Of a stretch of DNA of 64,000 nt, positions 20,872 through 63,151 are shown piece by piece. Both the position numbers and the translations under genes were made by a program. This DNA comes from Planctomycetota bacterium (GTDB lineage: Bacteria > Planctomycetota > Phycisphaerae > Sedimentisphaerales > Anaerobacaceae), in contig VRUL01000002.1 of NCBI GenBank assembly GCA_019456145.1, forward strand, positions 124,001 to 188,000. The letters are read 5' to 3'. Positions within the stretch are counted from its first letter, which is position 1; each line of letters begins with the position of its first letter. The notes under the pieces are model-generated. The model saw nothing but the letters and a program-made list of their open reading frames with translations, had not been told where the DNA came from and searched no databases.

Positions 20872-20873
20872 TC

Positions 20874-26205: not shown

Positions 26206-26206
26206 T

Positions 26207-28651: not shown

Positions 28652-28773
28652 CAAATTTTCTATTGATCCCCTAATAGAAATCGCGGATAACCAGAAAAAA
28701 CACCCTATATCCTCATAGATGTCAGATTATTGACACTCCGGACATACAAAAAAAAGAATATTTCTAATGGGGG

Positions 28774-28802
28774 TTGACAACTCCGCTGTTTATCGATAAA
28801 TA
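28774..28802 (+). promoter_or_regulatory. Probable promoter of the mreBCD-mrdA cluster
   Basis: A perfect TTGACA at 28774 and a weak TAAATA at 28797 are 17 bp apart, about 30 bp before the mreB ATG. Confidence 0.35.
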
Positions 28803-28832
28803 ATAGGCAATTGAAATTTATGAAGGGAATCG

Positions 28833-29891
28833 ATGTTGCTGCTGGACAGAATCTTAGGCTGGTTCAGTATGGATATGGGGATCGACCTTGGTACTTGCAC
28901 TACCCTGGTTTGTGTCCGCGGAAAAGGGATTGTTCTCAATGAACCATCTGTGGTCGCGGTTCGCAAAGGAACCAATACTGTTTTGAATAATGGCGAAGCA
29001 GTCGGCCTGATCGCAAGAGAAATGCTCGGAAAAACACCGGGCTCCATTAGCGCGATAAGGCCCCTGAAAGACGGCGTAATCAGCGACTTTGAAATCACTG
29101 AGGCAATGCTCGGTTATTTTATACGAAAGGTCCACGGCAGGGGTGGGCTTATCAGGCCTCGCGTCGTAATCGCTGTGCCAAGCGGCATAACCGCCGTTGA
29201 AAGAAGGGCTGTAATAGATAGCGCCGAAAGAGCGGGGGCTCGAAAGGTATACCTCGTGGATGAGCCAATGGCTGCCGGAATCGGGGCAGATCTGCCGATA
29301 ACTGACCCAACCGCTTCTATGATTGTCGATATCGGCGGTGGAACCACTGAAGTGGCAATAATGAGCCTCGCAGACATCGCAACATCCGAATCTATACGAA
29401 TCGGAGGAGATGATATGGATGAAGCCGTCATCAGTCATCTGAAAAAAACTTACAACCTGCTTATCGGTGAGATAAGCGCCGAAAAGGTCAAAATACAAAT
29501 TGGCTCGGCCGCTCCGCTCGAAGAGGAATTGACTATGGAGGTCGCCGGAAGAGACACAATCTCGGGACTGCCAAGAAAAATCGTTATTACAAGTGAGGAA
29601 ATCCGTGAAGCTATGCGCGACCCCATCGCTGCAATTATAGATACCGTTACTGCAACACTGGAGAAAGCAAAACCAGAACTGGCTGCCGATTTGATTGAGA
29701 ACGGTGTGCACATTTGCGGCGGTGCTTCTCTGTTGAGGGGAATGGATTCTATTCTCGCAAATGCAACTGGACTCAATGTTCAAAGAGTGGACGACCCCCT
29801 TAGTTGCGTGGCTCGAGGAACCAGCGTCTACCTGGAAAATCTCGAACTGTGGAAAGATACAATGGACCATAATGAGTACGGATTGGAATAA
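28833..29891 (+). CDS. mreB: Rod shape-determining protein MreB
   Basis: 352 residues, an actin-fold ATPase. Phosphate-1 loop MGIDLGTCTTLVCVRGKGIV, VVAVPSGITAVERRAV-type segment (VIAVPSGITAVERRA), phosphate-2 loop MIVDIGGGTTEVAIMSL and adenosine loop ICGGASLLRGMDSIL are all present. It forms membrane-bound filaments that guide side-wall synthesis. It begins the cluster mreB-mreC-mreD-mrdA. The C-terminal tail after YLENLELWKDTMDH is short. Confidence 0.95.
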   Translation: MLLLDRILGWFSMDMGIDLGTCTTLVCVRGKGIVLNEPSVVAVRKGTNTVLNNGEAVGLIAREMLGKTPGSISAIRPLKDGVISDFEITEAMLGYFIRKVHGRGGLIRPRVVIAVPSGITAVERRAVIDSAERAGARKVYLVDEPMAAGIGADLPITDPTASMIVDIGGGTTEVAIMSLADIATSESIRIGGDDMDEAVISHLKKTYNLLIGEISAEKVKIQIGSAAPLEEELTMEVAGRDTISGLPRKIVITSEEIREAMRDPIAAIIDTVTATLEKAKPELAADLIENGVHICGGASLLRGMDSILANATGLNVQRVDDPLSCVARGTSVYLENLELWKDTMDHNEYGLE

Positions 29892-29933
29892 TTCGTCGTG
29901 CGTGCCGTGTAATAACCGGTGCGTAATACGCTC

Positions 29934-30767
29934 ATGGCAAGGAAGCTAATTAGAGCCTGGGGTCCCGAACGCGATAACATACGTTTGGGGTCTATCTCAA
30001 GACCAATGTTATTTACATGGTTTATGTTATCCGGATTTATACTCCTGTTTTCACCGAAGAACCTTACAAATGACCTTCAGTTTGCTTTTGCCCGCCTTTT
30101 TCGCTGGCCTTTAACTATCGGAAAGAATATTTCGCTCTATGCACGAACAAAGCAACCGGCGCCCGGGACCACGTTCTCCAAAGAATCAAACTACATTGCC
30201 AACCTTGAGGAACAGTTACGACAAAAACATCTGGAGGTCATAGAGCTGTCAAGGCTGCAAACTAGATTCCATGCCCTGGAAAATGCAGGCCTCCTTATGG
30301 CAATTGTCTACAGGTTCTCTATAAATGGAGCACGCTGCGAGCTTACAATCAGCCGCGGCAAAAACGACGGACTCGCCAAAGGATACTACGTTCTGGGCGA
30401 CAATAGTATCATCGGAACGGTTTCTGACGTCTCGCCAACCACGGCCCGGGTTAAGTTATTTACAGACCCTGCATCAAAAATAGCAGTAAGGATAGGAAAC
30501 TTAAATATAGACAGACTCATGGAGGGCGCAGGTAAAGATTTAGCCAAGATAGAACACCTCTCAATAAAACACAAAATCAACGTCGGTGACGAGGTCTTTG
30601 CCCGAAAAAAACCGGGTTTTATCGACGCATCCATGATTATCGGAGTAGTCGCAAGGTGCGAAAGGGACGATAGAAATCCGTTAGTTTGGGATATAACGGT
30701 TAAACCCGTCTGTGATATAGAAAGACTAAATACTATAACCGTAATTATTATGAATCCGCAGGAATGA
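29934..30767 (+). CDS. mreC: Rod shape-determining protein MreC
   Basis: 277 residues from ATG 29934: a short cytoplasmic N terminus, one membrane helix (MLFTWFMLSGFILLFSP), a coiled coil (NYIANLEEQLRQKHLEVIEL) and the beta-barrel domain (LTISRGKNDGLAKGYYVLGD, IIGTVSDVSPTTARVKLFTD). It links MreB to the periplasmic cell-wall enzymes. It lies 42 bp downstream of mreB. The sequence is diverged from the proteobacterial form but the layout is complete. Confidence 0.88.
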   Translation: MARKLIRAWGPERDNIRLGSISRPMLFTWFMLSGFILLFSPKNLTNDLQFAFARLFRWPLTIGKNISLYARTKQPAPGTTFSKESNYIANLEEQLRQKHLEVIELSRLQTRFHALENAGLLMAIVYRFSINGARCELTISRGKNDGLAKGYYVLGDNSIIGTVSDVSPTTARVKLFTDPASKIAVRIGNLNIDRLMEGAGKDLAKIEHLSIKHKINVGDEVFARKKPGFIDASMIIGVVARCERDDRNPLVWDITVKPVCDIERLNTITVIIMNPQE

Positions 30768-30830
30768 TTAAGAGCTTATTCTGCAAAAGTGTAAGAAAAA
30801 TAAGTGCCCCAAAAACCGTGAGGATATAAA

Positions 30831-31334
30831 ATGCGATGGCTTCGGTTCGCTGTCTTTATCTCTTTAGTTGCAGTACTGCAGGCCAGTCTCTTGCTGGATA
30901 TAATTGCGCTTCCGCCTTTGAGAAGCAAACCAAATTTGTTATTAATACTTTTGGTGTTTTTTGCTACGTCCTGCAACACCACCGATGCCATCATAACCTC
31001 TTTCGCAATAGGGTTTGCTGCTGATATTAGTATTGGTTCTGTAATGGGCTCACACACAATTAGCTTTGTTCTTTTCGGAACAGCACTGGCATATCTTCAC
31101 CGTGTGATTGCCATCAAAAAAATCTCTTACCAGGCGTTTGCTATTTTTTTAACCGCTTTATTGATAGGCATCCTCGCGCATTTTTTAGCTCTCCTGAGAG
31201 GCGAGTCGACCGTCTCAAACGTATACTCCGCTGTTCTGGGAATAGCCTTATATTCGGCCGTAGTCGGGCCGTTATTTTTCTTGCCGGCTGCCTGGTTCAT
31301 GCGTATAAAAACACATCGATTCGGCAGGTATTAA
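30831..31334 (+). CDS. mreD: Rod shape-determining protein MreD
   Basis: 167 residues with about five membrane helices (LRFAVFISLVAVLQASLLL, PNLLLILLVFFATSC, AIITSFAIGFAADISIGS, ISYQAFAIFLTALLIGILA, SAVLGIALYSAVVGPLFF). GFAADISIGS matches the G-x-DxxxG motif of MreD. The assignment rests mostly on size, topology and position between mreC and the PBP2 gene. Confidence 0.82.
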   Translation: MRWLRFAVFISLVAVLQASLLLDIIALPPLRSKPNLLLILLVFFATSCNTTDAIITSFAIGFAADISIGSVMGSHTISFVLFGTALAYLHRVIAIKKISYQAFAIFLTALLIGILAHFLALLRGESTVSNVYSAVLGIALYSAVVGPLFFLPAAWFMRIKTHRFGRY

Positions 31335-31411
31335 CTGCGGATTGTCTCAACTGCCAAAGCAGGGCGTATCTCTGACTAAATGCAGGTGACAACGCAGCGG
31401 CAAATGAAAAT

Positions 31412-33562
31412 ATGTATAATAAGCGAATCAAAATCTTTATAATCATAAGTGCACTGCTCTTACTGCCCTGTTTACTGCGACTGATACAAATACAGATATT
31501 GGCACATTCCTCCTACATGGAGCAAATCGAAGAATTAAAGCTACAACAGGGCGTCTCACGACAGCTTAAGACCATCAGGGGAAAAATTCTCGACCGAAAA
31601 GGCAGAGTATTGGCTGAAAACGAACCGCAGTTCCAGCTGCATATAAATTACAACATCAGCTGCCTGCTCGATGAACGTGTTCGAAAAGCAAAAATGCTCA
31701 ACGCCGCCGGACGTTCCATGCTCGCAAAGGGAAAATCCTCTTTATTCGATATACGCAAAGAAATGGACGCAAAGCTCCAGGACCTGCAGAAGATAATTGA
31801 CAAGTGTACGTACTTTGGCTTGGAGCGAAATGATGTCGAGCAGAAAATCGCCCGAATTAACGAGAGAATATGGAATTTCCGTACTTTCTTTGCATGGATG
31901 GGAAACCGCCCCGACCCGAAAATAATCGCCAAATATAACGGTAGATTCAGTGATGTCCCCCTGTCGGTAGCTATTCGGGATTTCAAAAAGGAATTCCCGG
32001 ATGAAACCGACCGTCTTCTGCTCATAGAAGAAATTAAAAACTTTCCTGAAATGAACAAAAGCTCTCGATTGCTCGAGTTAAAAACCGATTCCGATGTCTT
32101 TGATGCTCAATTAGAGTTTATGGATATTGAGGGTATTGAGATTCTGCCGGATGAAAAGAGATTGTACCCTTATGGCTCGGTTGCCTCACAAACAATAGGA
32201 TGGGTCGGTCCGCCGCAGAAAAGAGACAAGCTGCTTTTTGCAAATGATAAATTATCAAGATATATAAGCGATGAAGTCTGTGGCCGGGAAGACGGAGTCG
32301 AGTATATTTGTGAAACTATTCTGCGGGGCAGACGGGGCGAAAAACTATGGGACATAGACCGACAGCTTGTTAGTAGAACAGAGACACAGTTCGGCTTAGA
32401 CGTCACAATGACACTGGACATCGAGCTTCAAAAGGAAATAGAAGACCACCTCGCCGACTGCAACCTCAACCAAAACTGCACAGCACCTATGGCAGCGGTT
32501 GTGATTGACGTCAATACCGGGGATATCCTCGCGCTCGTATCAACACCGACCTTTGATTTGAACCTTGTCAGGCAAGACTATGACGCCCTGGCTTCCGATC
32601 CTAACGAGCCGCTGCGAAATAGAGCAATAAACAAGGGATATCCGCCAGGCTCAGTTGTAAAGCCTCTCATTCTCATCGCAGGGCTTCAATCCGGCAAAAT
32701 CTCCGCCGGAGAGACTATTAGCTGCCCGGCAAGAAAGGCGCCAAAATACTGGCCAAGCTGCTGGCTCTTCAATCAATACCAGAGCGGACACGACTATAAA
32801 TGGCAAAACATTGCAAGAAATGCCATCAGGGGAAGTTGCAATATTTATTTCTCACGACTCGCTGAAAGAATACAACCTATGGTCTTACAGCTATGGCTTT
32901 TCAAATTCGGCTATGGCAAAAAATTCCCTCTTGTACTGCCGACTGATAAATCAGGCAACCAGCATCGAAACTTAAGACAGGTAGCCGGTACAATTTCGTC
33001 CGTCCCTACAAGGGCAGCAATCTCACAACCAGACAAGATACCTGTTCTTTATAAGGGTGAAAGAAGATATTTCGGAATCGGACAGGGAAATCTCCGGGCC
33101 ACACCGTTACAAGTAGCAAATGCAATGGCCGCCATCGCGCGGGGGGGACTCTATAAAACGCCTCGCCTCTTTGTTAACGACCCGAACAAAAATCCAACAT
33201 CCCAGCTTCCAAATTCCGATGGAGTCCCCCTCGGCATCTCACCGCAAAACATCGCCGTTGTCCACGATGGTATGAGTGCCGTGGTTAACGAGCCAAGCGG
33301 AACCGCCAACAGCCAATTCGTCGAAAGCACTCTCCCCCTGCAGGCTGTAAAGGTTTATGGAAAAACAGGCTCAACCCAGGCCCCGGAAACCGCCTGGTTC
33401 GCAGGCTTCGCAACTGATGATGCCGGCCGAAGCATCGCTATCGCCGTTCTCGTCGAAGGTGGACAACGCGGCTCAACCGATGCAGCTCCTTTAGGCTTTG
33501 GCATCATACAGTTGTGTATTGACTCCGATTATTTAGGCCCATCTCTGCAAACAAACCAATAA
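31412..33562 (+). CDS. mrdA: Penicillin-binding protein 2 (elongation transpeptidase)
   Basis: 716 residues. One N-terminal membrane helix (KIFIIISALLLLPCLLRLI), a dimerisation domain with RGKILDRKGRVLAENEPQF, then the transpeptidase: SxxK in PPGSVVKPL (Ser ~414), SCN in RGSCNIYFS (~475) and KTG in VYGKTGSTQ (~650). It cross-links peptidoglycan during elongation with the Mre proteins. It is longer than the usual ~620-residue form, with an extra segment of ~90 residues (31690-32090: LDERVRKAKMLNAAGRSML to IEEIKNFPEMN) in the pedestal domain. rodA does not follow. Confidence 0.92.
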   Translation: MYNKRIKIFIIISALLLLPCLLRLIQIQILAHSSYMEQIEELKLQQGVSRQLKTIRGKILDRKGRVLAENEPQFQLHINYNISCLLDERVRKAKMLNAAGRSMLAKGKSSLFDIRKEMDAKLQDLQKIIDKCTYFGLERNDVEQKIARINERIWNFRTFFAWMGNRPDPKIIAKYNGRFSDVPLSVAIRDFKKEFPDETDRLLLIEEIKNFPEMNKSSRLLELKTDSDVFDAQLEFMDIEGIEILPDEKRLYPYGSVASQTIGWVGPPQKRDKLLFANDKLSRYISDEVCGREDGVEYICETILRGRRGEKLWDIDRQLVSRTETQFGLDVTMTLDIELQKEIEDHLADCNLNQNCTAPMAAVVIDVNTGDILALVSTPTFDLNLVRQDYDALASDPNEPLRNRAINKGYPPGSVVKPLILIAGLQSGKISAGETISCPARKAPKYWPSCWLFNQYQSGHDYKWQNIARNAIRGSCNIYFSRLAERIQPMVLQLWLFKFGYGKKFPLVLPTDKSGNQHRNLRQVAGTISSVPTRAAISQPDKIPVLYKGERRYFGIGQGNLRATPLQVANAMAAIARGGLYKTPRLFVNDPNKNPTSQLPNSDGVPLGISPQNIAVVHDGMSAVVNEPSGTANSQFVESTLPLQAVKVYGKTGSTQAPETAWFAGFATDDAGRSIAIAVLVEGGQRGSTDAAPLGFGIIQLCIDSDYLGPSLQTNQ

Positions 33563-49876: not shown

Positions 49877-50025
49877 TAGGGTTGTGATACAAAAATATCC
49901 GCAATTTTTCTTTCATCACAGCTATGCAGCGGTTAAAATTGACATAGAAGATTACTGCAAGCCAAAACATTCGCATCTAAAGAGTAAGTGTTGGTTTGGG
50001 TCTTCTTAATAGAAGGGAAAACGTC

Positions 50026-50796
50026 ATGCACAGAAGAAAAGGATTCACATTAGTAGAGCTTTTGGTGGTGATTGCGATTATCGCCCTGCTGATGGCGATG
50101 TTGCTGCCTGCACTGGAGCGGGCCAGAGAGCAGGGCAAGCGTGTCATCTGTCTTAACAACCTCAGGCAGTTGATGCTCGCTTGGAATTTGTATGCCGATG
50201 ATAACGATGGCAAGATCGTTAACGGTAATACGAGCACCGGCGGCTTCAACAAAGACGGCACTTGTTGGGTTTACTGGCCCGGCTCGGGTGCCTCTGAAGA
50301 ACAACGAATACAGGGAATCAAAGATGGTCTGATATTTAAATACTGCCCCAACGTAAAACTCTACAAGTGCCCGACTGGTTTGTTTGGAGAGGTTGTCACT
50401 TATGCTGTAGTTGATGCGATGAATGGTTATGACGCGATACCTGGAGCCGCTGGGAAGATAGTTAAAACTCGGATGGAGATTCGCACGCCGGGAGGAAGGG
50501 CTGTTTTTCTTGATGAAGGCCGGTTAAGTCCCGCCAGTTGGACCATTTGGTACGACCAGGAACGATGGTGGGACCAAATTACGGCGAGACACGGAGACGG
50601 GACAAACCTCTCTTTTGCGGATGGGCGTGCTGAATACTGGAAGTGGGAAGACCCGCGTACGATAGAGGTTGCCGAGATGGAATACAACTACTGGCAAAGC
50701 ACCGGCCGTCAAGGCGCCATATCTACGCAACCGGGAAATCCGGATTTGCACAGAGTGCAAAAGGCCGTATTCGGAGAATTAGGCTATACTCCATGA
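50026..50796 (+). CDS. Prepilin-like protein with FADGR-type C terminus
   Basis: 256 residues from ATG 50026. Class III leader [19 protein letters not shown] with cleavage before Phe and Glu at +5, then [20 protein letters not shown]. The C-terminal half has the planctomycete pattern [20 protein letters not shown], related to the H-x9-DG proteins of the DUF1559 group. Likely assembled through or by a type II/IV pseudopilus machine at the cell surface. Its last ~95 codons plus 20 bp of 3' flank (50512-50816) are duplicated at 56441-56745. Confidence 0.85.
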
Positions 50797-50816
50797 CCTC
50801 CACCTTAGAGTAATTT
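50512..50816 (+). repeat. 305-bp direct repeat, left copy (3' end of the prepilin gene)
   Basis: Identical to 56441-56745 except for about seven single-base differences, among them a silent one at the repeat start (GATGAAGG versus GACGAAGG) and changes that make GAIST into GPIST and LHRVQK into LHNVQK. Together with the right copy it brackets the CBASS operon. Confidence 0.95.
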
Positions 50817-50883
50817 TTTGCTTGTATTATTTATTATTATTCTGTTGGCCGAATCCACGGCGTCAAACCCTCCGGCTGGCCAT

Positions 50884-50915
50884 AAAAATTAGAAACCTAT
50901 CCCGCAGCGATCCAC
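50884..50915. repeat. 32-bp direct repeat, left copy
   Basis: AAAAATTAGAAACCTATC-CGCAGCGATCCAC; the right copy at 56061-56092 differs at one base. Both flank the CBASS operon. The rest of 50817-51180 is gene-free and contains low-complexity GAGATACGA-type text. Confidence 0.8.
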
Positions 50916-51180: not shown

Positions 51181-51852
51181 TCACTTTATCGAATCGTAAA
51201 AAAATGATTGATAGTTCTTTTGCAGAGTAGCGAACCTCCAAAAGATCAAGTCTATTACAGATACTTTTTCTCCAGTCAATTGAGATATATCTGAACACAT
51301 CAATTGTGGAGAATTATATCCCACAGCTTTTGCGATTCTACTCAAATGCCTGTCTGGTTTGCTTACCGGCAAACCCAGATTTTTTGCAAAGTGATAAGAA
51401 GTGGCTGGGCCCATGTATGGGAATTTCATTATGTATTCTATTCCATCTTTTTCAATACTACGACAAACGTCATCAAATCCATTTATATGGACATGGGCAG
51501 AAACTCTAATAATGGCCTCGATTTTTTTACGGTGCCCGAAGTGTCTGAGTGCTACTTTCAGACATCTTTTTATGTTTTCCACGATTTTCTTAGCTGATTC
51601 CCAATCGAAAAAAGCTTTTGAGATCATAGGGAATTTTTGCCTCACAATAGACTCTTTCATTCCACAAGAGAGGATTACCCATGCTGCTTCTCTTAAAAAG
51701 TCACTTTCACCAACATTTTCAAATTGAATGCTCTCTTGCCAATCAATTTCAGAATGATATCCCGCATCTATTACGAAGGATTTGGCTGACAAATAGGCAC
51801 ATGCTATTCGATCAAGCAATGTTGAACCTTCTAATTCACTATTCATTTTCAT
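51181..51852 (-). CDS. HhH-GPD / OGG-like DNA glycosylase family protein of type IV CBASS
   Basis: 223 residues from ATG 51852, which overlaps the stop of the upstream gene by 14 bp; a second ATG lies at 51846. The helix-hairpin-helix and following loop are seen as FPYMGPATSYHFAKNLGLPV then SKPDRHLSRIAKA. The Asp of the GPD motif (PDRH) is present, but the Lys that bifunctional OGG enzymes carry in the hairpin (GVGxK) is Ala here, so lyase activity is doubtful. OGG-like genes are one of the ancillary types recorded for type IV CBASS. It is the last gene of the six-gene operon. It may process modified bases; the target is unknown. Confidence 0.75.
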   Translation of the reverse strand: MKMNSELEGSTLLDRIACAYLSAKSFVIDAGYHSEIDWQESIQFENVGESDFLREAAWVILSCGMKESIVRQKFPMISKAFFDWESAKKIVENIKRCLKVALRHFGHRKKIEAIIRVSAHVHINGFDDVCRSIEKDGIEYIMKFPYMGPATSYHFAKNLGLPVSKPDRHLSRIAKAVGYNSPQLMCSDISQLTGEKVSVIDLIFWRFATLQKNYQSFFYDSIK

Positions 51853-52447
51853 CGTTTTTTGTTTCGCTATCTTTTTTGCTTCTGCAAGCATTTAAAAATC
51901 CTATACAAAAAATCTTGGCACGAAGTACCCAAAGAGGACACCCAGGATTATTATCGACCATTTTACTGATTTGAATCTTCCTTTTATGTAAGATCTTTAG
52001 TTTCAGGAACTTATTTTCCGGTATTGCTGGTAGCATCTTAAACGTCCAAAGGCATTCCTCACAAACCTTAGATACATTTTCTTTAGTTGGTTTTTCTTCC
52101 GACTTCAGTATTCTTCTACATTCTCCCTTGCATCGAGATAGCAGTGCCGTGGCTTCAGCATGTTTTTGAGCTTGTCCTTTCCAATCCATACGAAGAATTA
52201 TTAGTGATATAAAGAATACCACGCCAGAACATATGCCAATAATTAACCGAACGACTTGCGGGTCGATTTTGAATTGTATCAGTATGCCTGAATCGAAAAA
52301 GACCATCGCACACAGTACAATCGACGAGCCTAATAGAATCAAATCAATCAATATAGCTTTACGGCTGTTGCTATCACGCAACTTACAGTGCGCAGTCAAC
52401 ATCATATCAATTACTCTGTAGTGATGTTTCAGTTCATCAAGGCTCAT
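51839..52447 (-). CDS. Two-TM SLATT-like protein, probable CBASS effector
   Basis: 202 residues from ATG 52447, seven bases after the CD-NTase stop. A short N-terminal helix (LDELKHHYRVIDMMLTAHCK) is followed by two membrane helices (AILIDLILLGSSIVLCAMVF; VVRLIIGICSGVVFFISLII) and a long cytosolic helical part with several Cys. This is the SLATT-type layout of pore-forming effectors predicted to open on cyclic-nucleotide binding and depolarise the membrane. A frame from 52510 adds 21 residues inside the CD-NTase and is less likely. Its place directly after the CD-NTase supports the effector role. Confidence 0.7.
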   Translation of the reverse strand: MSLDELKHHYRVIDMMLTAHCKLRDSNSRKAILIDLILLGSSIVLCAMVFFDSGILIQFKIDPQVVRLIIGICSGVVFFISLIILRMDWKGQAQKHAEATALLSRCKGECRRILKSEEKPTKENVSKVCEECLWTFKMLPAIPENKFLKLKILHKRKIQISKMVDNNPGCPLWVLRAKIFCIGFLNACRSKKDSETKNDENE

Positions 52448-52454
52448 GACAAAC

Positions 52455-53381
52455 TCAAAGCCCCCCAAGTATCTGTTCCCACTGTTTTTCTGAATGAGCT
52501 CTGTCAGCATTTTGAATCCTACGTCCTATGCGAGATAATGTATCAGCAATTAATTTCCGATTAAGGCTTCCAGTTTTACCAAGATAATCATCAACATGGG
52601 TAGACTGCCCAGTTTTATCAAGCATAGGCTTTTTAGTATAATTTCCTGCGTTGTTAAAGAAATACTTCAACATTTCCTTTGTTTTTTTCTCACCTTTGTA
52701 GCTTCTGAATACTTTGAGCGCAAGCGCTTCTAAGTGGTAACTCTCGAGCTGGCGGTTCTTCGCTTGGCAAGAATTGATTGACTTCACCAGCTTAATAGTA
52801 GGAATAAGATTTCCATCACTTTTTTTGTTTATTTTCGTCAATGCTTCTGTAAACTCTTTCGATTTTATAAAGGACCAATTCTTTCCAGTAGAATCTGCTA
52901 TTCTAAAACCTCCCTTATATCTAATTGCAGGTAGCAATTGGACATCAATATCGGAGTAAGTAACAGTAATGGCTAAATTACCTTTCTCAATTGGAGTTTC
53001 TTTGGGTAATCTCTCGCTCAACCTATCAAGAAAATAATTTTTTACTTCCTCTGGAGAAGCATCTTTAAGTTCAGATTTATTCAATATTACAAGTGCATCT
53101 ACGTCACTTAAGCCATCAACATATGTGTGTTTTGAAACGGATCCACCAAAACGAATGTCTACCGTTCCGTCAATTTCCTTCTCTATGGCTTTCTTTATTA
53201 TTTCCAAGTGAGTTTGTACTTTCTCACTGCGCTGGTTGTATTTCCTGAGCAAGGAAGCAAAATTTGAAGCAACCGCTGTTTCAAATTGTGCATCATGCGT
53301 TTTTTCTTCTGAATCGCGCACCTTTTTAAAAATCTCTTCAGGTGGCCTGCCACCTCCAAAGATACCGCCTGATCCACCCAT
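52455..53381 (-). CDS. CD-NTase (CBASS oligonucleotide cyclase) with Gly-rich N terminus
   Basis: 308 residues; ATG 53381 follows AAAGGAG. The nucleotidyltransferase core is plain: GGSVSKHTYVDGLSDVDALV (GS at 80-81, DVD at 93-95) and a third acidic strand YSDIDVQLLPA (Asp 144/146), then the helical C-terminal half (TIKLVKSINSCQAKNRQLES, SYHLEALALKVFRSYKG). Such enzymes make cyclic di- or trinucleotide alarms on phage infection. The N terminus MGGSGGIFGGGRPPEEIFKK is a flexible Gly-rich tail; after Met removal it exposes Gly. In type IV CBASS the CD-NTase N terminus is reported, as I recall, to be the site of deazaguanine attachment by the QueC-like protein, which matches this tail. Confidence 0.9.
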   Translation of the reverse strand: MGGSGGIFGGGRPPEEIFKKVRDSEEKTHDAQFETAVASNFASLLRKYNQRSEKVQTHLEIIKKAIEKEIDGTVDIRFGGSVSKHTYVDGLSDVDALVILNKSELKDASPEEVKNYFLDRLSERLPKETPIEKGNLAITVTYSDIDVQLLPAIRYKGGFRIADSTGKNWSFIKSKEFTEALTKINKKSDGNLIPTIKLVKSINSCQAKNRQLESYHLEALALKVFRSYKGEKKTKEMLKYFFNNAGNYTKKPMLDKTGQSTHVDDYLGKTGSLNRKLIADTLSRIGRRIQNADRAHSEKQWEQILGGL

Positions 53382-53384
53382 TAT

Positions 53385-54473
53385 TTATATCTCCTTTTTA
53401 ATTATTTTACATAACTTTTCATACGCATCTTTTAAAAAATTTCCATTGAATTGAATTTTATCATAATCATGATCCAAAGCAAATTGTTCCATCTCTAATT
53501 GCAAGTCCATTAAATAATATAGATTATGCTTCATGCTTTGAGCTCTTATAAAATCGTCCTCTTTGTTAATTCCTAAAGAAAGTATGCCATTATTACGATA
53601 ATAAAGCGTCCTGCCTTCAAAATATCCATATCTCAACCAGCTTAGGCCATCGAACAACTCTGCTCCAGAAAGATAATACAGCCACGACGTTAAAGGATCT
53701 AAACTTCCAAAAATGTGTAATGGAGCATCAACTTTTGCATCATCCATAGCTAACCTAATTTTAGCTATATTTTCCATTACCATCGACACTGAATTACCAA
53801 TGTCTTTATCTGCAATTCCTACTATATCAAAATCTTTGAACTTATTAATATTTTCACGGATACCATTAAGGGTTTTTCTAAATGTTTGTTCATCACTTAC
53901 TGGTTTTATTAAAAAAGCGCATAATTGTTTTCCCCTGAATCTGGAAAATAATTGCTTCGCCAATTCTATCTGTTTATCAACTGATTCCCCTTGATGATCA
54001 AAACTGATGAATACTGCGGGAACATAATCAGGCCAAGATCCTAAAACCTCAATATAATACTCCCTCTTCCATTCATTATCGATAACAGTACTTCGGATGA
54101 TTGTTGAATAATCAAAAGTATCACCTACCTCATAACCCCCGCTATCCAAAAAAGTAATATCTGGAGTATTATTTTGATAAGGTATAGGAATGTGTTTATG
54201 AAATATATCATAAGCACTAACAAGCATCGAATCAGTCAAGGTATCTATAGATTCTATAAGGAATACTGTGACCTCAGAAATTTTTCCAGTAGTGGGATTA
54301 TTCTTTTCTGACAATTTGGTTTCGGTTTGAAAAAAAGGATACTCGCATTCCTTTGGTTTTGGTATCGACTTCGGGAATATACATCCTTTGCTTGAAAATG
54401 ATGGAATTAACATCGGGGTTTTAATTTCTAAACCTGAAGGATGCTTGAGCACAGACCTTCTAACAAGGTTCAT
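53385..54473 (-). CDS. cap10: TGT-like (tRNA-guanine transglycosylase family) CBASS ancillary protein
   Basis: 362 residues. DITFLDSGGYEVGD (Asp 110) corresponds to the DSGG(F/Y)Q motif of TGT enzymes, and LHIFGSLDPLTSWLYYLSGA-ELFDGLSW to the G-x-P-x-D...FD segment with the nucleophilic Asp. The CxCxxC zinc site of true TGTs is not visible, so tRNA exchange is doubtful. In type IV CBASS the TGT-like protein (called Cap10 in the nomenclature I remember) is a standard partner. It overlaps the QueC-like gene by 14 bp, and its stop is 3 bp before the CD-NTase start, so translation is coupled. The N-terminal ~100 residues are family-specific. Confidence 0.78.
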   Translation of the reverse strand: MNLVRRSVLKHPSGLEIKTPMLIPSFSSKGCIFPKSIPKPKECEYPFFQTETKLSEKNNPTTGKISEVTVFLIESIDTLTDSMLVSAYDIFHKHIPIPYQNNTPDITFLDSGGYEVGDTFDYSTIIRSTVIDNEWKREYYIEVLGSWPDYVPAVFISFDHQGESVDKQIELAKQLFSRFRGKQLCAFLIKPVSDEQTFRKTLNGIRENINKFKDFDIVGIADKDIGNSVSMVMENIAKIRLAMDDAKVDAPLHIFGSLDPLTSWLYYLSGAELFDGLSWLRYGYFEGRTLYYRNNGILSLGINKEDDFIRAQSMKHNLYYLMDLQLEMEQFALDHDYDKIQFNGNFLKDAYEKLCKIIKKEI

Positions 54474-55029
54474 ATAATTTCTCCAGATCTTTACATGATA
54501 AACATTTACCGCAAGGCTGTATTAGACCAAGTTCACAACTAAAAGTCATCTCTATTGGGACTTTTTCTTTTATACAATAATCCCAGACATTACGTTTATC
54601 CCATTCCAGAAACGGAGCATCGATAGATATACAATTATTTGAATACGCATTAAAACACCGCTGAACAATTTTAATAAAATCTTTTGAACAATCCCAATAG
54701 TTAGTGCCGGAATGTACTCCGATGGATATTAAACCGCTATCAACTTTGAAATTCATTAGGGCTGCAAAAAACAGGAAAGCATTTCTCCCTATTACAAAAC
54801 CATCGCCCCATCTATTACCTCCCGAAATTACAATCTTTTCCAATGTTATATTGTAATAATTGCTAATTAGTTCTGCTGCTTTTAACTCAGGAGTAGCAGC
54901 AATTTGACCGTAATCGATAAATAAAGCTGAAACGTTAAATTTCCTTTTAATATAATAGTCCACACATGCAGTTGAATCGATACCACCACTCAACAGAACT
55001 AATACTTTGGTTTGATTGCTATTATGCAT
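54460..55029 (-). CDS. cap9: QueC-like 7-deazaguanine-synthesis family protein of type IV CBASS
   Basis: 189 residues, shorter than the ~230 of housekeeping QueC. PP-loop VLLSGGIDSTACVDYYIKR (SGGIDS at 14-19), ALFIDYGQIAATPELKAAEL, and a zinc site from Cys 165, 173, 176 and 179 (SCELGLIQPCGKCLSC). QueC converts 7-carboxy-7-deazaguanine to preQ0 with ATP. No queD, queE or folE is in the window, so this copy is not part of a queuosine operon; with TGT-like and CD-NTase genes it is the type IV CBASS protein (Cap9 as I remember the name), reported to join a deazaguanine to the CD-NTase N terminus. The ATG overlaps the upstream stop by one base (TAATG). Confidence 0.85.
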   Translation of the reverse strand: MHNSNQTKVLVLLSGGIDSTACVDYYIKRKFNVSALFIDYGQIAATPELKAAELISNYYNITLEKIVISGGNRWGDGFVIGRNAFLFFAALMNFKVDSGLISIGVHSGTNYWDCSKDFIKIVQRCFNAYSNNCISIDAPFLEWDKRNVWDYCIKEKVPIEMTFSCELGLIQPCGKCLSCKDLEKLYEPC

Positions 55030-55622
55030 TACTTTCTTTTAATATCCCCGGATATAAATTTTTCAATTTCTGTATGATTATTATTCTTCAAAACACATTC
55101 CGATTTTAAATCCATTTTAGTTGATTTTCCGTTATGTATAATAAGACAACGAGCCGTCCATAAAATAGCCATAAGCCCAAGTAAGGCAAAAACACCAAAC
55201 ATAATATTGAAACAATTTGAATAACTAAAGTGTTTGTTCCAAGGTAATTTCCGTGTTTTTTGTCGTTCTTTTTGAACATTAAAGTCATCATAATGGAACA
55301 ATTTAAAGTTATGAGGTACGCCCTCATTGTTTTCAGATATAACCTCATCTTCTATAGTTTTTAATGCCTGTTCTGCGTTTTTAATAAGTTGCTTGTTTCT
55401 AACATCAAGTTTCCAAAAAACAAAAGACAAGACTATAAGCAAGAACCCTATAACAATGCCTATAAAAATGAGACTGTCTTCTTTTAAAGAAATAACATAA
55501 CCACTCAGTAATAAAGTAGATATAACAATGTAAAATTCAAATGTTTTAAGTCTCTGACCCGCATGAAGTTGAAAATAATCCCAAGCATATTGCCGAATGT
55601 TAAAATCCTTATGATTCATCAT
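55029..55622 (-). CDS. Three-TM protein at the head of the CBASS operon
   Basis: 197 residues from ATG 55622 (GAGGA upstream; a second ATG follows at once). It opens NIRQYAWDYFQLHAGQRLKT and has membrane helices at about 27-45 (FEFYIVISTLLLSGYVIS), 51-70 (LIFIGIVIGFLLIVLSFVFW) and 137-158 (FNIMFGVFALLGLMAILWTA), with a soluble helical stretch between the last two. I have seen RQYAWxYFxLHAxQRL-type membrane proteins near other defence genes but cannot name the family with certainty. It could be a second effector, an immunity or sensor component, or unrelated cargo, though the one-base overlap with QueC argues for functional linkage. Confidence 0.65.
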   Translation of the reverse strand: MMNHKDFNIRQYAWDYFQLHAGQRLKTFEFYIVISTLLLSGYVISLKEDSLIFIGIVIGFLLIVLSFVFWKLDVRNKQLIKNAEQALKTIEDEVISENNEGVPHNFKLFHYDDFNVQKERQKTRKLPWNKHFSYSNCFNIMFGVFALLGLMAILWTARCLIIHNGKSTKMDLKSECVLKNNNHTEIEKFISGDIKRK

Positions 55623-55898: not shown

Positions 55899-56060
55899 AT
55901 CGGACGCTGGTCGCAGGCTTCGCAGATGCTTGTATCGAGAAAGCCACTAACCAAGTCCGCACCGGCTGGCAAAAAACCTCCGCGAAACTTGTGCCTGAGG
56001 TATCCGCGTTCTCTGCGGTTAATAATTGAGTCTTTTTCGTGTCTTTATGCCTTAGTGGCA

Positions 56061-56092
56061 AAAAATTAGAAACCTATCGCGCAGCGATCCAC
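56061..56092. repeat. 32-bp direct repeat, right copy
   Basis: Pairs with 50884-50915 with one mismatch (CTATCG versus CTATCC). Confidence 0.8.
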
Positions 56093-56238
56093 GGTTTCTT
56101 TTGATTCTTTTTAGTAGGTTTTTGCCAAAAAGTAGCCAAATCTGTAGACTTTTTGGTCAATTTTCTCATTTTACTTTGTACTTTTGCACTTTTATCTTTG
56201 ATTTTTGCATTTTAATCTTTGATTTCCCTCCCCGGCCA

Positions 56239-56440
56239 TCAGAACGTCAACACCTTATAATCACTTTTGAGCATATCCGAAAGTGGTTTCCCCATAGCCT
56301 TAACTTCAATACCCATCTCTCGCAGCCGATCTGAAACGCCGTACATATCCGCACAAACAACACACGCCTGCACAACCACCCCATCCTTAATCATTTGTTT
56401 GACCCCCTCCTGCAGTTTCTTATCTCCTGCTAAGATTCTC
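56239..56440 (-). pseudogene. Truncated copy of the DsrE-family gene (3' two-thirds of the domain)
   Basis: This 202-bp stretch matches 59808-60009 with about eight base differences and codes for the same residues from SRILAGDKKLQEGVKQMIKD to the end KVLTF. The similarity starts further left in shared ATTTTAATCTTTGATTT flank. The 5' part of the gene, including the signal peptide, is missing and is replaced by prepilin sequence at GACGAAGGCC (56441-56450). Confidence 0.9.
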
Positions 56441-56745
56441 GACGAAGGCCGGTTAAGTCCCGCCAGTTGGACCATTTGGTACGACCAGGAACGATGGTGG
56501 GACCAAATTACGGCGAGACACGGAGACGGGACAAACCTCTCTTTTGCGGATGGGCGTGCTGAATACTGGAAGTGGGAAGACCCGCGTACGATAGAGGTTG
56601 CCGAGATGGAATACAACTACTGGCAAAGCACCGGCCGCCAGGGCCCCATATCTACGCAACCGGGAAATCCGGATTTGCACAATGTGCAGAAGGCCGTATT
56701 CGGAGAATTAGGCTATACTCCATGACCTCCACCTTAGAGTAATTT
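56441..56745 (+). pseudogene. Truncated copy of the prepilin gene (last ~95 codons), right repeat copy
   Basis: Carries the codons from [20 protein letters not shown] to ELGYTP plus 20 bp of 3' flank, 98% identical to 50512-50816. It lacks leader and N-terminal helix, so it cannot be a pilin. In the plus frame it is fused to antisense DsrE sequence, giving an artificial open frame of 152 codons from 56267. Confidence 0.92.
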
Positions 56746-56786: not shown

Positions 56787-56815
56787 CCTCTCCCTCCGCC
56801 GGAGAGGGGCTTTTT
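56787..56815 (+). terminator. Rho-independent terminator, plus strand
   Basis: CCTCTCC (56787-56793) pairs with GGAGAGG (56801-56807), followed by GGCTTTTTG. It lies downstream of the prepilin relic. Confidence 0.6.
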
Positions 56816-56833
56816 GTATTTCTGCGCACTAAA

Positions 56834-56859
56834 AAGGCCCTGAGTTTTGTCAGGGCCTT
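56834..56859 (-). terminator. Strong terminator hairpin after the YWTD-repeat gene
   Basis: AAGGCCCTGA pairs perfectly with TCAGGGCCTT around a 6-base loop. On the minus strand the stem is followed by TTTTTAGTGC, so it should end transcription of the gene at 56919-59141. Confidence 0.75.
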
Positions 56860-56918
56860 AGTTTGTTGTGGTTTCTAACAGAGTGACCGGCTTTTTTGCA
56901 ACATCACCGCACTCAGGT

Positions 56919-59141
56919 TCAATTAGTCACATCCTGATAAAGCTCTTGGATTTCAGTAGTAGATAAACTCTTGTCGTAAACCTGCACATCACCCATAAGG
57001 CCGTGGAAAGATTGCGTAGAGGAGCTTCCATTATTCCCGATGTCTGCCGTGGACGGCAAACTTACTAAACCGCTGTAGCTTCCGGTATCCAACATTAAGC
57101 CATTGACATAAACGGCATAAGCCCCTGTATTCCAGGTCAGGGCGATATGATACCAGATTCCCGTATTCAAAGTTATGAGATTGATTTCACCGTGATTACC
57201 AACCTTCATATCGAGCTGGGTATTACTGTTACTCATATAGAGTAGTATTTTGTTGATACCGCCGTTGTCACAGCCGAAAAAGTATCCGCTGCCATTCCTG
57301 CCGCCTCCTCTTATCTGCGGCTCCGTCAGATTAGCCCATACCGAGACCGTTCCCATTGCGGTTGTCATCCCTGAGGTGGGAATTACAACCCGGCTAAGAT
57401 TATTACTCCCATCAAAATTCAAAGCATCTTCGGCTGGCGCCCAAACCAAGCCATCGTCTGGCCCATCCGTAAGTGTACCATGATTTTCATTACCGGAAGA
57501 ATCATAGGCAATATTGCCGGAGGTCTCATCAAATCCCCACCGTCCGACCAGATTAGGATCAATTATTGTTGTAAAACTCCATACTTCACCTGTAGTCTTA
57601 CCACCCGGACCAATTCCATCTATCCGCCAATAATAAGCAGTCTCGTACTCCAAGGTTCCGGTATCAAAAGTGGTACTGGTCTGGTTGCCCTGGAGGTCGT
57701 TTTCATCAGGTGTTGGATTAGTCCCAAAGTACACATAATGTGACTCTGTATCAGAACCAGCAGTCCAAATCAAATCAGCCACTATGCTCACATTTGTTTC
57801 CGTGTCAAACGGATTGGGATTAGTGGCCTGACTTGGTGCAGGGGCGGTGGTAAAGTTCCAGACAGCACCGGCAGTCATGCGCCCTATGCCAACCTCAGTA
57901 ATCCGCCAGTAATAAGCTGTACCCGCATCCAATGTACCGGGATCAAAAACAATATCCGACTGACTACCCTGGAAAGTACCCGGACTGGCCTTACCTAAAA
58001 ATACATTGTGTGATATAGCATTTGGATCTGCGACCCAACTTAGATGTGAAGTTATCCTTACACCTGTCTCACCATCATTCGGATCAGGGCTATTAGCTTG
58101 TCCTGGTGCAGGGGCCATCTTTGAGAAGTACTGTCCCAACAAAGCAAGGTCAACAAAATCAACTTTGTTATTACGGTCAAGATCAGCACCGACACACCAA
58201 CTGTTCATCGAACAATCATTGTTCAACCATCTGCCAGCCAAAACAGCAATGTCAGCCCAATCGATATAATTACCAATCGGCAGTTCAGGCACATCAAGAG
58301 CTATGCCCATAACAAACTCTAAGCCTGTAATAAGGTCTTCCATTCCTGATCCATCCAAATTTGCACGTTGAATCCTGCCAGAGCTACCTCCCGTCCAGTA
58401 CATCGTGCCAGCGGAAATATCAAGAGCTATCCCAATGGGCTCACTTATTCCACTTGTAACAAGATATGTCACTCCAGAACCATCCAGATTAGCACACTGG
58501 ATCTTGTGTCCATCATAGTCCGCCCAGTACATCTTGCCAGCGGAAATATCAAGAGCAATCCCAATGGGGCCAATTATTCCACCTATAACGAGGTCTGTCA
58601 CCTCAGACCCATCCAGATTGGCACACTGTATCTTCTGTGCAGCAATGTCCGCCCAGTACATCTTGCCAGCGGAAATATCGAGGGCTATCCCAGTGGGGCC
58701 AATTATTCCACTTGTAACGAGGTCTGTCACCTCAGACCCATCCAAATTAGCACACTGTATCTTCTGTGCAACATTGTCCGCCCAGTACATCTTGCCAGCG
58801 GAAATATCGAGGGCTATCCCAACGGGATAACTTAATCCATTTGAAACAAGATCTGTCACCTCAGACCCATCCAGATTAGCACTCTGGATTTTGTCTGCAT
58901 ATGAGTCCGCCCAGTACATCTTGCCAGCGGAAATATCGAGGGCTATCCCAATGGTTTCACTTGCCCCACTTAACAAAACAAGGTCTTCCACGTCAGAACC
59001 ATCCAGATTCGCCCTCTGGATCTTGTGAGGCCCATAATAATTACCTGTCCAGTACATCTTTGAGTCGGCAAATACGTTGATGTGCCCCATGACACACAAA
59101 AGAATCACAACTGCCAAAACACAAATTGATTGCCTTCTCAT
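56919..59141 (-). CDS. Exported YWTD beta-propeller protein with dockerin-like, Fn3-like and LamG modules
   Basis: 740 residues. Signal peptide, then six LDL-receptor class B (YWTD) repeats at about residues 27-290, each with MYWAD..., KIQxANLDGSxVTDL and GIALDISAG; six make one closed propeller. Repeats 2-5 are nearly identical at 43 residues. A dockerin-like pair follows (IDWADIAVLAGRWLNND; ADLDRNNKVDFVDLALL), two Fn3-like modules (each with YYWRI and VWNFTT/VWSFTT) and a C-terminal LamG (WGFDETSGNIAYDSSGNENH to GLMGDVQVYDKSLSTTEI). A surface or extracellular protein, probably glycan- or protein-binding. The leader carries an attenuator-like hairpin (59177-59239). The ribosome site is TGAGGAG. 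Confidence 0.85.
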   Translation of the reverse strand: MRRQSICVLAVVILLCVMGHINVFADSKMYWTGNYYGPHKIQRANLDGSDVEDLVLLSGASETIGIALDISAGKMYWADSYADKIQSANLDGSEVTDLVSNGLSYPVGIALDISAGKMYWADNVAQKIQCANLDGSEVTDLVTSGIIGPTGIALDISAGKMYWADIAAQKIQCANLDGSEVTDLVIGGIIGPIGIALDISAGKMYWADYDGHKIQCANLDGSGVTYLVTSGISEPIGIALDISAGTMYWTGGSSGRIQRANLDGSGMEDLITGLEFVMGIALDVPELPIGNYIDWADIAVLAGRWLNNDCSMNSWCVGADLDRNNKVDFVDLALLGQYFSKMAPAPGQANSPDPNDGETGVRITSHLSWVADPNAISHNVFLGKASPGTFQGSQSDIVFDPGTLDAGTAYYWRITEVGIGRMTAGAVWNFTTAPAPSQATNPNPFDTETNVSIVADLIWTAGSDTESHYVYFGTNPTPDENDLQGNQTSTTFDTGTLEYETAYYWRIDGIGPGGKTTGEVWSFTTIIDPNLVGRWGFDETSGNIAYDSSGNENHGTLTDGPDDGLVWAPAEDALNFDGSNNLSRVVIPTSGMTTAMGTVSVWANLTEPQIRGGGRNGSGYFFGCDNGGINKILLYMSNSNTQLDMKVGNHGEINLITLNTGIWYHIALTWNTGAYAVYVNGLMLDTGSYSGLVSLPSTADIGNNGSSSTQSFHGLMGDVQVYDKSLSTTEIQELYQDVTN

Positions 59142-59176
59142 TTTTTCTCCTCAAAAATTGTTGATAAAATAAAAAA

Positions 59177-59239
59177 GGGCACCGCTGTTTGTGCGTTTTT
59201 AGGCCTTTCGGCCTGTTGGAGGAGGAGCGAGCGGTGCCC
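59177..59239 (-). promoter_or_regulatory. Attenuator-like hairpin in the leader of the YWTD gene
   Basis: On the minus strand GGGCACCGCT (59239-59230) pairs with AGCGGTGCCC (59186-59177), and TTTTTTATTTT follows at once: a full intrinsic-terminator form, but placed upstream of the ATG at 59141. The loop holds a second stem, AGGCC-GAAA-GGCCT, with a GNRA loop. This could be a leader attenuator or the terminator of an upstream transcript. Confidence 0.55.
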
Positions 59240-59294
59240 CTTGTTAATGCAAAAGAAACACGGATTTATTGCTTTGAGAAACTCCAACCAATTT

Positions 59295-59350
59295 TCTCCC
59301 TTCACAGCTTTACTCCATCAGTGAAGATAACCAAATCATATACCATAGAA
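59295..59350. repeat. Dispersed degenerate repeat, copy C
   Basis: CTTTACTCCATCA-TGAA and the next ~20 bp match copy B (49758-49876). Confidence 0.4.
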
Positions 59351-59476
59351 ACGGCCGTACGTCAAGGAAAAAAACCTCCGCATTCTTTTCACCAAAATCC
59401 CAAAAAATCTCCAATCTTGGCCCGCTTGTCCGAATCCCTGTATGTTGTAGACAGGGACCCAGATGTCTTTCCCCAA

Positions 59477-59802
59477 ACAAATAAAAGTCCGCCCGAAGGG
59501 CCTCCACAATTTTGCATTTTACATTTTAATCTTTGATTTCCCTCCCGAATCCGAGTCCCTGCATGCTTTAGGCAGGGATCCAGCTATTTATGTGCTTATA
59601 AAGCACTTTTTTTCACTTTTTTGCTCGTTTTTGGCCTGTTTTGTATTCTTTTTGACTACAATTTGAACATATTTAGACCATTTTCTCATACTCTCATTTA
59701 CTCATTCACGCATACACCTTATCGCCGCCACCCCCGCATACAAATAAAAGTCCGCCCGAAGGGCCTCCACAATTTTGCATTTTACATTTTAATCTTTGAT
59801 TT
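59477..59802. repeat. Pair of 63-bp perfect direct repeats
   Basis: The stretch from ACAAATAAAAGTCCGCCCGA to TTTAATCTTTGATTT occurs at 59477-59539 and again at 59740-59802. Between them are two related hairpin motifs, CCCTGT...ACAGGG (59436-59456, just before) and CCCTGC...GCAGGG (59557-59577). The 665 bp between the YWTD gene and the DsrE gene hold no gene. A degenerate form of the TTTAATCTTTGATTT text also precedes the DsrE relic at 56239. Confidence 0.85.
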
Positions 59803-59807
59803 TCCCA

Positions 59808-60239
59808 TCAGAACGTCAACACCTTATAATCACTCTGGAGCATATCTGAAAGTGGCTTCCCCATAGCCTTAACTTCAATACCCATCTCTCGCAGCCGATC
59901 TGAAACGCCGTACATATCCGCACAAACGATGCACGCCTGCACAACCACTCCATCCTTAATCATTTGTTTGACCCCCTCCTGCAGTTTCTTATCTCCTGCT
60001 AAGATTCTCGACGAAGGCCCCCATATTATCAGCACAACCTCATCGAACCACTTCTGTTTCTTGGCGTTATGCGTATACATAAAGCAGACCTTATGCGCCA
60101 CATCCGAGTCCCCGCTCGTCCACACCACCGCCACCTTACTCGCCCCCGGCCGATGCGCGCCTTTCACAAACATCTGCCCCCCTGCCACGCCAGCCGCCAA
60201 AACAATCATCACCAGGACAAAATACTTTTTCGATTTCAT
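59808..60239 (-). CDS. Exported DsrE-family protein
   Basis: From ATG 60239 (AGGAA upstream) the protein has 143 residues. An N-terminal signal or anchor (YFVLVMIVLAAGVAGG) precedes a DsrE/F-like domain: VVWTSGDSDVAHKVCFMYTH, EVVLIIWGPSSRILAGDKKL and VVQACIVCADMYGVSDRLRE, ending MGKPLSDMLQSDYKVLTF. The ACxxCA pair sits where DsrE-type sulfur carriers have their active Cys, so a sulfur-relay or redox role outside the cytoplasm is possible. Part of this gene is copied at 56239-56440. It is transcribed away from tRNA-Gly(TCC). Confidence 0.82.
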   Translation of the reverse strand: MKSKKYFVLVMIVLAAGVAGGQMFVKGAHRPGASKVAVVWTSGDSDVAHKVCFMYTHNAKKQKWFDEVVLIIWGPSSRILAGDKKLQEGVKQMIKDGVVVQACIVCADMYGVSDRLREMGIEVKAMGKPLSDMLQSDYKVLTF

Positions 60240-60450
60240 AATTCCTGCCTCACAAAAAAATGCCAAAATATTGCGACCTAAAATTACGGCTCTCAATACC
60301 GCATTTCACGATTCTCGCCATTATACCCTCTTTTCCGCCGGGTTGCTACACCACATTTCCTGCCCCCACAGAGCCCCGACCCGTAATGGAGGGGCAACCT
60401 CACCAAAGACAAAGATTGTTAGTCTCTCCACCAAAAGCAGTTACAAAAAA

Positions 60451-60521
60451 AGCGGGCGATGGGAATCGAACCCACCTAGCCGGCTTGGAAGGCCGATGCA
60501 TTTCCACTATGCTACGCCCGC
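60451..60521 (-). tRNA. tRNA-Gly (anticodon TCC)
   Basis: On the minus strand: acceptor GCGGGCG/CGCCCGC, D arm, anticodon loop CTTCCAA on a CGGC/GCCG stem, T loop GGTTCGATTCC. CCA not encoded. An integrase gene starts 57 bp from its 5' end, so this tRNA may lie beside or within an attachment site. Confidence 0.95.
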
Positions 60522-60577
60522 TTATAAAGCAGTATATCAAAAGAGACGATATACGCAATAAAGAAAAGGAGAGAAGG

Positions 60578-62197: not shown

Positions 62198-62728
62198 TTG
62201 CAAATCTTGCTCCTGTCGTGTAGATTCCCAGTAGCGTTATATATATCTCATATAGACATCGATAAAGGTGAACCGAGTGATACGGTCATTAAGATTCTTC
62301 GGAAAAGGAAGTTAGAAATAGAAAGTAAAATAAAACATCTGGAAATGATTCAGGGTGTCATAAATCGAATGGCACATGACTCATTCTTATTAAAAGAATG
62401 GAGTGTTATATTGGTATCCGCCCTATTTGTCTTAGCAGCTAAAGATTCAAATATTTATTTCATTCTTTTAGCATATTTCCCCGCTCTGGCATTTTGGATT
62501 TTAGATGGATACTTCCTATGGCAAGAGAGGCTTTTCCGTAAATTGTACGACAAGGTTCGGAAAATGAATGAAGCTGATATAGATTTTTCGATGGATACTT
62601 CAGATTTTGTTGGTGATGTAGAATCTTGGTGTAAGGTCACTTTTTCAAAAACACTCCGTCTTTTCTATGGGGTAATCGTAGGCACAATTTTGATTGTGAT
62701 GGTAATAGCAATATTTTCAGTTTGTTGA
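62198..62728 (+). CDS. Multi-TM protein paired with a TIR-like gene
   Basis: Up to 176 residues. The conserved part is KHLEMIQGVINRMAHDSFLL, two adjacent membrane helices (WSVILVSALFVLAAKD; IYFILLAYFPALAFWILDGY), LWQERLFRKLYDKVRKMNEA and a third helix at the C terminus (LFYGVIVGTILIVMVIAIFS). The start is uncertain: no ATG lies in frame before residue 47, so TTG 62198 is a placeholder. I remember this family next to MTH538-type TIR genes in other genomes. The TIR-like gene begins 12 bp later, so the two are one unit; the membrane protein would be the effector. Confidence 0.6.
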   Translation: MQILLLSCRFPVALYISHIDIDKGEPSDTVIKILRKRKLEIESKIKHLEMIQGVINRMAHDSFLLKEWSVILVSALFVLAAKDSNIYFILLAYFPALAFWILDGYFLWQERLFRKLYDKVRKMNEADIDFSMDTSDFVGDVESWCKVTFSKTLRLFYGVIVGTILIVMVIAIFSVC

Positions 62729-62740
62729 AAGGAGCTAAAA

Positions 62741-63151
62741 ATGGCCAGAAGAGTATTTTTCAGTTTTCATTATGCTGATATTATGAATGCTAACATTGTC
62801 CGTATGTCGGGGGAGTTCAAGCCAACAGCGGAAACCGGATTTTACGACGCTTCCCTTTGGGAAGATGCAAAAACTAAAGGTGACACCGCTATTCAGAGAT
62901 TAATAGATAAAGGTTTTGATAACACCAGCGTAACTTGCTTCCTGCTTGGCGAGCATACTCATTCCCGAAAATGGTGCAAATACGAGCTTAAAAAAAGCAT
63001 AGCTGACGAAAAGGGTATCCTTGGCATACTTCTGCCAAATCAGTCAAAGCACGGCCCGAAATGGATTAGCAATTACGGTAAGGTTCATACATGGGATCAT
63101 GATGAATTTGCTGACTGGATTGAAAAAGCTGCAAAAGATGCAGGTAGGTAA
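62741..63151 (+). CDS. MTH538-type TIR-like domain protein (ThsB-related)
   Basis: 136 residues; ATG 62741 follows AAAGGAG. The N terminus RRVFFSFHYADIMNANIVRM is the first TIR strand with its following loop; TSVTCFLLGEHTHSRKWCKY-EL contains the Glu-bearing helix of this family, and GILGILLPNQ the next strand. Such TIR-like proteins include ThsB of Thoeris, which makes a NAD-derived signal after phage infection. No ThsA-type (SIR2-SLOG) effector is visible; the membrane protein upstream is the candidate effector. Enzymatic activity is inferred only. Confidence 0.78.
   Translation: MARRVFFSFHYADIMNANIVRMSGEFKPTAETGFYDASLWEDAKTKGDTAIQRLIDKGFDNTSVTCFLLGEHTHSRKWCKYELKKSIADEKGILGILLPNQSKHGPKWISNYGKVHTWDHDEFADWIEKAAKDAGR

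What the first reader, a model, noticed from the sequence alone, without database searches (positions are those of the whole stretch)
56239..56745. Chimeric pseudogene: DsrE relic joined to prepilin relic at a 10-base microhomology
The copy of DsrE (minus strand) switches to prepilin sequence (plus strand) exactly at GACGAAGGCC, a string present in the DsrE gene (60010-60019) and, with one change, in the prepilin gene (50512-50521). This is a clean example of microhomology-mediated joining. Each half has its own set of base differences from its parent, so the join is not recent.
Basis: seen in the sequence. Interest (0 to 1): 0.62.

Follow-up and report, generated by a model that had tools for sequence, protein, structure and literature searches.

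The report
Duplication joint of two gene ends

Summary
Window 56235-56450 copies 59804-60019 (dsrE 3' part; 8 differences in 212 coding bases) and 56436-56745 copies 50507-50816 (prepilin 3' part, 97.4%). The switch is at 56441-56450, with 7 exact shared bases (GAAGGCC), 9 of 10 or 13 of 16 matching.

The interpretation needs revision. Both halves keep their parents' orientation, and the dsrE end is joined to the prepilin start, between intact prepilin (left) and intact dsrE (right). That is the seam of a direct (tandem-type) duplication. Between prepilin and scrap lies a complete low-GC type IV CBASS cassette whose TGT gene is absent from 60 relatives; between scrap and dsrE lies an unrelated LDLR-repeat/LamG gene.

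'The join is not recent' is not supported. All relic-specific changes are synonymous, reading frames are intact, and four of eight dsrE differences arose in the intact gene. The prepilin differences sit in one 52-base block that mostly matches a third prepilin copy. The divergence looks older than the join, as if two versions of one locus were fused. In-lineage duplication, templated patching and assembly error remain possible. A good small case of a known process; modest interest.

The parts
49996..50796 (+). Intact prepilin-like gene (N-terminal methylation motif), parent of the right half; conserved 3' tail continues to 50881
   Evidence: PF07963 E 1e-9; TIGR02532; tail shared with C48 copy and with G001 and G004 copies
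50884..50915 (+). 32-base element, copy (a), two bases after the prepilin tail
   Evidence: 97% to 56061-56092; only two copies in the genome at 3 mismatches or fewer, a third at 89%
51181..55622 (-). Type IV CBASS cassette: OGG-like, 2TM/SLATT effector, CD-NTase (N-terminus MGGS), TGT-like, QueC-like (Cap9), plus an 8xMP membrane protein; 35% GC against 46% for the window
   Evidence: PADLOC and Pfam matches, NF041117 over cut-off, GC and N-terminus; TGT gene absent from 60 relatives and from 391 other phylum genomes sampled
56048..56092 (+). 32-base element, copy (b), with 13 more bases; the same element lies 38 bases downstream of the intact dsrE in sister genome G001
   Evidence: 95% over 43 bases to L049
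56235..56450 (-). Truncated dsrE copy (last 70 codons and stop), left half of the chimera, reading frame intact
   Evidence: 8 differences to 59808-60019 in 212 bases, 3 to 4 derived here and all synonymous
56441..56450 (.). Joint: GACGAAGGCC (exact overlap GAAGGCC, 56444-56450)
56444..56745 (+). Truncated prepilin copy (last 95 codons plus 20 bases of tail), right half of the chimera, reading frame intact; stops 65 bases short of the tail shared by intact copies
   Evidence: 97.4% to 50507-50816; clustered differences
56919..59141 (-). LDLR-repeat/LamG surface-type gene filling the space between chimera and intact dsrE
   Evidence: PF00058, PF13385
59808..60296 (-). Intact dsrE-like gene, parent of the left half
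   Evidence: PF02635 E 2.4e-6; 82% protein identity to G001, where it follows mrdA

Best explanation
The chimera is the seam of a direct duplication of the prepilin-to-dsrE slot. Recombination at a short shared sequence (GAAGGCC, embedded in 13 of 16 matching bases) joined the interior of one dsrE to the interior of one prepilin, giving prepilin - [insert 1] - dsrE' | prepilin' - [insert 2] - dsrE. Shown here: the order, orientation and microhomology; that insert 1 is a type IV CBASS cassette and insert 2 an LDLR/LamG gene. Inferred: that the two halves came from two versions of the locus (for instance resident and incoming DNA of a close relative), one carrying CBASS and the other the LDLR gene, so that most base differences predate the join. 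No function is proposed for the chimera itself; it is a scar with two truncated, non-expressed gene ends.
For: Both halves in direct orientation and in the order a duplication seam requires. Microhomology beyond chance. The left flank of the chimera keeps an element (56048-56092) found downstream of dsrE in the sister genome but missing at the intact dsrE, and the intact prepilin keeps a conserved tail (50817-50881) missing in the chimera; so each copy lost different ancestral flank, and the present LDLR-containing arrangement was not simply duplicated. Relic changes all synonymous, no stops. Divergence in the prepilin half confined to a 52-base block mostly resembling another copy. CBASS is foreign: 35% GC, unique among about 450 planctomycete genomes sampled. 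Duplications with joints of 11-27 bases are documented in Salmonella (PMC3411829) and 9-base borders are used to direct tandem duplications (PMC11111574).
Against: The interiors of the two supposed copies (5.4 kb and 3.0 kb) share nothing but the two ends and the 32-base element, so two further insertions or replacements must be assumed. The synonymous argument rests on 3 to 5 changes and mainly one outgroup at about 80% identity. No genome with only one of the two versions was found. In the Salmonella study tested duplications with 7- and 9-base joints were not confirmed, only those of 11 or more.
Confidence: 0.45

Rival explanations
1. Old tandem duplication within one lineage: a compact prepilin-dsrE unit (roughly 0.8 kb) was duplicated at the microhomology, then CBASS inserted in the left copy and the LDLR gene in the right copy while the truncated ends drifted.
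For: Same order and orientation evidence; needs only one genome; the 32-base element beside both prepilin and dsrE' hints that they were once close neighbours.
Against: Drifting ends should collect mainly amino-acid changes, yet all relic-specific ones are synonymous, and 194 bases beside the joint are unchanged.
Confidence: 0.25
2. Templated patching: during repair at a break between CBASS and the LDLR gene, a polymerase copied about 250 bases of dsrE, switched at GAAGGCC to prepilin, copied about 300 bases and switched away (MMBIR/FoSTeS-like).
For: Short gene-end patches occur elsewhere on the same contig (LDLR gene ends copied at C33:258635-258933 and 263449-263650), so 200-300 base fragments in intergenic DNA are a habit of this genome.
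Against: Direct orientation and seam order would be coincidence; the left flank keeps an ancestral dsrE-downstream element that the present dsrE lacks.
Confidence: 0.2
3. Assembly artefact: reads of two strains, or the 194-base exact repeat, were resolved wrongly.
For: The source is a metagenome bin with no 16S gene found, so probably short reads; a 194-base exact direct repeat (prepilin versus prepilin') is longer than common k-mers, so the order of its exits depends on read pairs, and an alternative reading (chromosome without CBASS plus a 5.9 kb circle) fits the same k-mers.
Against: The seam itself shares only 7 exact bases, far below any assembler overlap, and both halves differ from both parents, so a mis-join of parental reads cannot make it.
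Confidence: 0.1

Closest known systems
Spontaneous tandem duplication at short direct homology (Salmonella, PMC3411829; engineered 9-base borders, PMC11111574)
   Same: Direct orientation, seam joining the end of one segment to the start of another, short homology at the joint
   Different: Exact overlap here only 7 bases (13 of 16 inexact); copy interiors differ completely (CBASS versus LDLR gene); a fixed natural example, not an observed event
Microhomology-mediated template switching (FoSTeS/MMBIR)
   Same: Short microhomology, pieces of nearby sequence in an intergenic patch
   Different: Orientation and order fit one seam; only the central joint shows clear microhomology
Type IV CBASS (cassette adjoining the chimera)
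   Same: CD-NTase with MGGS N-terminus, QueC (Cap9), TGT, OGG, 2TM effector
   Different: Extra 8xMP membrane gene; not part of the chimera

Membership tests
Direct (tandem-type) duplication joint | Both halves in the orientation of their parents | tested here: met
Direct (tandem-type) duplication joint | Order: downstream parent's end, then upstream parent's start, located between the parents | tested here: met
   50.5k prepilin, 56.24-56.75k seam, 59.8k dsrE
Direct (tandem-type) duplication joint | Short shared sequence at the joint | tested here: met
   7 exact, 13 of 16; P about 0.0004
Direct (tandem-type) duplication joint | Rest of the duplicated unit present in both copies | tested here: not met
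   Self-comparison finds only the two ends and a 32-base element; interiors differ, so a plain intact tandem duplication is not claimed, only its seam
Decayed pseudogene | Stops, frameshifts or amino-acid changes accumulating in the relic | tested here: not met
   Frames open, relic changes synonymous
Type IV CBASS | CBASS cyclase with modifiable MGGS N-terminus plus QueC, TGT, OGG and effector in one operon | tested here: met
   MGGS requirement from PMC13279940
Type IV CBASS | Anti-phage activity | not testable with these tools
   needs an assay
Assembly artefact | Joint not spanned by reads | not testable with these tools
   no reads available

The most novel reading that the evidence does not exclude
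Two alternative contents of one variable slot (a type IV CBASS cassette and a surface-protein gene) were stacked side by side by a single microhomology joint between two versions of the locus, leaving the chimera as seam and a 310-base direct repeat through which the 5.9 kb CBASS unit could loop out again. This would be a transposase-free way to gain and lose a defence cassette.
Probability: 0.35. Interest if true: 0.45.

Novelty: new member of a known kind. Interest (0 to 1): 0.25.

Why it matters
It records how a foreign defence cassette can end up beside an older gene through short homology without any recombinase gene of its own, and it cautions that differences between a relic and its parent need not date the relic: here about half of the dsrE differences arose in the intact gene and the rest are synonymous.

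Tried and rejected
Duplication of the present prepilin-LDLR-dsrE arrangement: rejected, because the left copy keeps the prepilin tail (50817-50881) and the dsrE-side element that the LDLR-containing copy lacks. The 32-base element as target-site duplication or attachment site of CBASS: considered, not adopted, since the GC change (about 51.1k and 55.7k) lies inside it and it belongs to a low-copy dispersed family. Chimera as expressed fusion: open frames exist on both strands, but the antisense frame is already open in the intact prepilin, and neither half keeps its N-terminus. Non-coding RNA: no Rfam match but the tRNA. Same chimera in relatives: none in 88 family genomes. Ancestral dsrE neighbourhood from three more distant genomes (G077, G065, G088): not conserved, uninformative.

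Full report
What is there. The window is contig C33:124001-188000 of a 5.7 Mb planctomycete metagenome bin. At 56235-56745 a dsrE 3' fragment meets a prepilin 3' fragment. Self-comparison gives 56197-56450 against 59774-60019 (92.5%; 96% over the gene part without gaps) and 56436-56745 against 50507-50816 (97.4%).

Geometry. Both halves have the DNA orientation of their parents. The seam reads (dsrE interior)|(prepilin interior) and lies between intact prepilin on the left and intact dsrE on the right. A direct duplication of the region between the two points makes precisely this seam; unrelated scraps would match orientation and order only by luck.

What separates the pieces. 51181-55622 is a complete type IV CBASS cassette: OGG, 2TM effector, cyclase, TGT and QueC by PADLOC, NCBIfam CBASS cyclase over its cut-off, and the MGGS N-terminus reported as the target of Cap9 modification (PMC13279940). 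It has 35% GC and its TGT gene is found in none of 60 relatives nor in 391 other genomes drawn from the phylum. 56919-59141 is an LDLR-repeat/LamG gene. These inserts share no sequence.

Ancestral flanks. The sister genome G001 has dsrE directly after mrdA, with a 32-base element (43 bases aligned) 38 bases downstream. That element lies left of the dsrE half (56048-56092) and again just after the intact prepilin tail (50884-50915), but not at the intact dsrE. Conversely the tail 50817-50881, conserved in C48, G001 and G004 copies, is present at the intact prepilin and missing after the prepilin half. So each copy lost different ancestral sequence; the present right-hand arrangement was not the thing copied. 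The element is a low-copy dispersed family (3 in each genome), so this rests on position as well as sequence.

Age of the join. Against G001, of eight dsrE differences four arose in the intact gene (two change amino acids), three in the relic and one is unresolved; every relic change is synonymous. For unconstrained sequence the chance of three out of three is about 0.015, and 0.004 with the single relic-specific prepilin change. The six prepilin differences outside the joint lie within 52 bases (P about 0.001), and five of them equal the C48 paralogue, which points to gene conversion or another version of the gene rather than slow decay; the 194 bases beside the joint are identical.

Mechanism. 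I favour a microhomology joint between two versions of the prepilin-dsrE slot, one with CBASS and one with the LDLR gene. An older in-lineage duplication with later insertions has the same geometry. Template-switch patching is kept open because short gene-end patches occur elsewhere on the contig. Assembly error at the seam itself is unlikely (7 exact bases), but the 194-base exact repeat leaves room for an alternative ordering in a short-read bin (no 16S found).

Standing. Duplication seams at short homology are well described in bacteria (PMC3411829, PMC11111574). This is a new natural instance, made somewhat more interesting by the defence cassette beside it.

Noticed in passing
60480-60521 and C33:195928-195969 (L048:7928-7969): 42-base direct repeat (95%) of part of tRNA-Gly(tcc) (60450-60522, minus strand) bounding about 11.5 kb with a tyrosine recombinase (to 61387) at one end and a candidate SLATT plus TIR defence pair (62198-63151; PDC-M50/ThsB-like): probably an integrated island beside dsrE.
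   Followed up: partly
20294-33545 and 59715-60357: In G001 mrdA and dsrE are adjacent and co-directional; here the mre operon lies at 20-33.5 kb (+) and dsrE at 60 kb (-), so an inversion of about 27 kb or a relocation of dsrE separates the two species.
   Followed up: partly
L047:601-1470 (C48): The C48 prepilin has an in-frame insertion within the N-terminal prepilin signal (FTPLEI RKQKICPELPTSFLTGF ILVELL), absent from the C33 copy.
   Followed up: no
50797-50881; L047:1468-1584; L015 and L016 after the prepilin stop: Strongly conserved stretch after the prepilin stop codon in three genomes, ending in a coding-like DWPEWMRKFKDY-stop; truncated in the C33 copy.
   Followed up: no
56805-57005 and 59085-59374; C33:263449-263650 and C33:258635-258933: Both ends of the LDLR/LamG gene have 84-86% identical short inverted relics 75-82 kb away, around unrelated genes.
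   Followed up: partly
59471-59542 and 59734-59805: 72-base local direct repeat (96%) between the LDLR gene and dsrE, made of an AT-rich dispersed repeat family of this genome.
   Followed up: no
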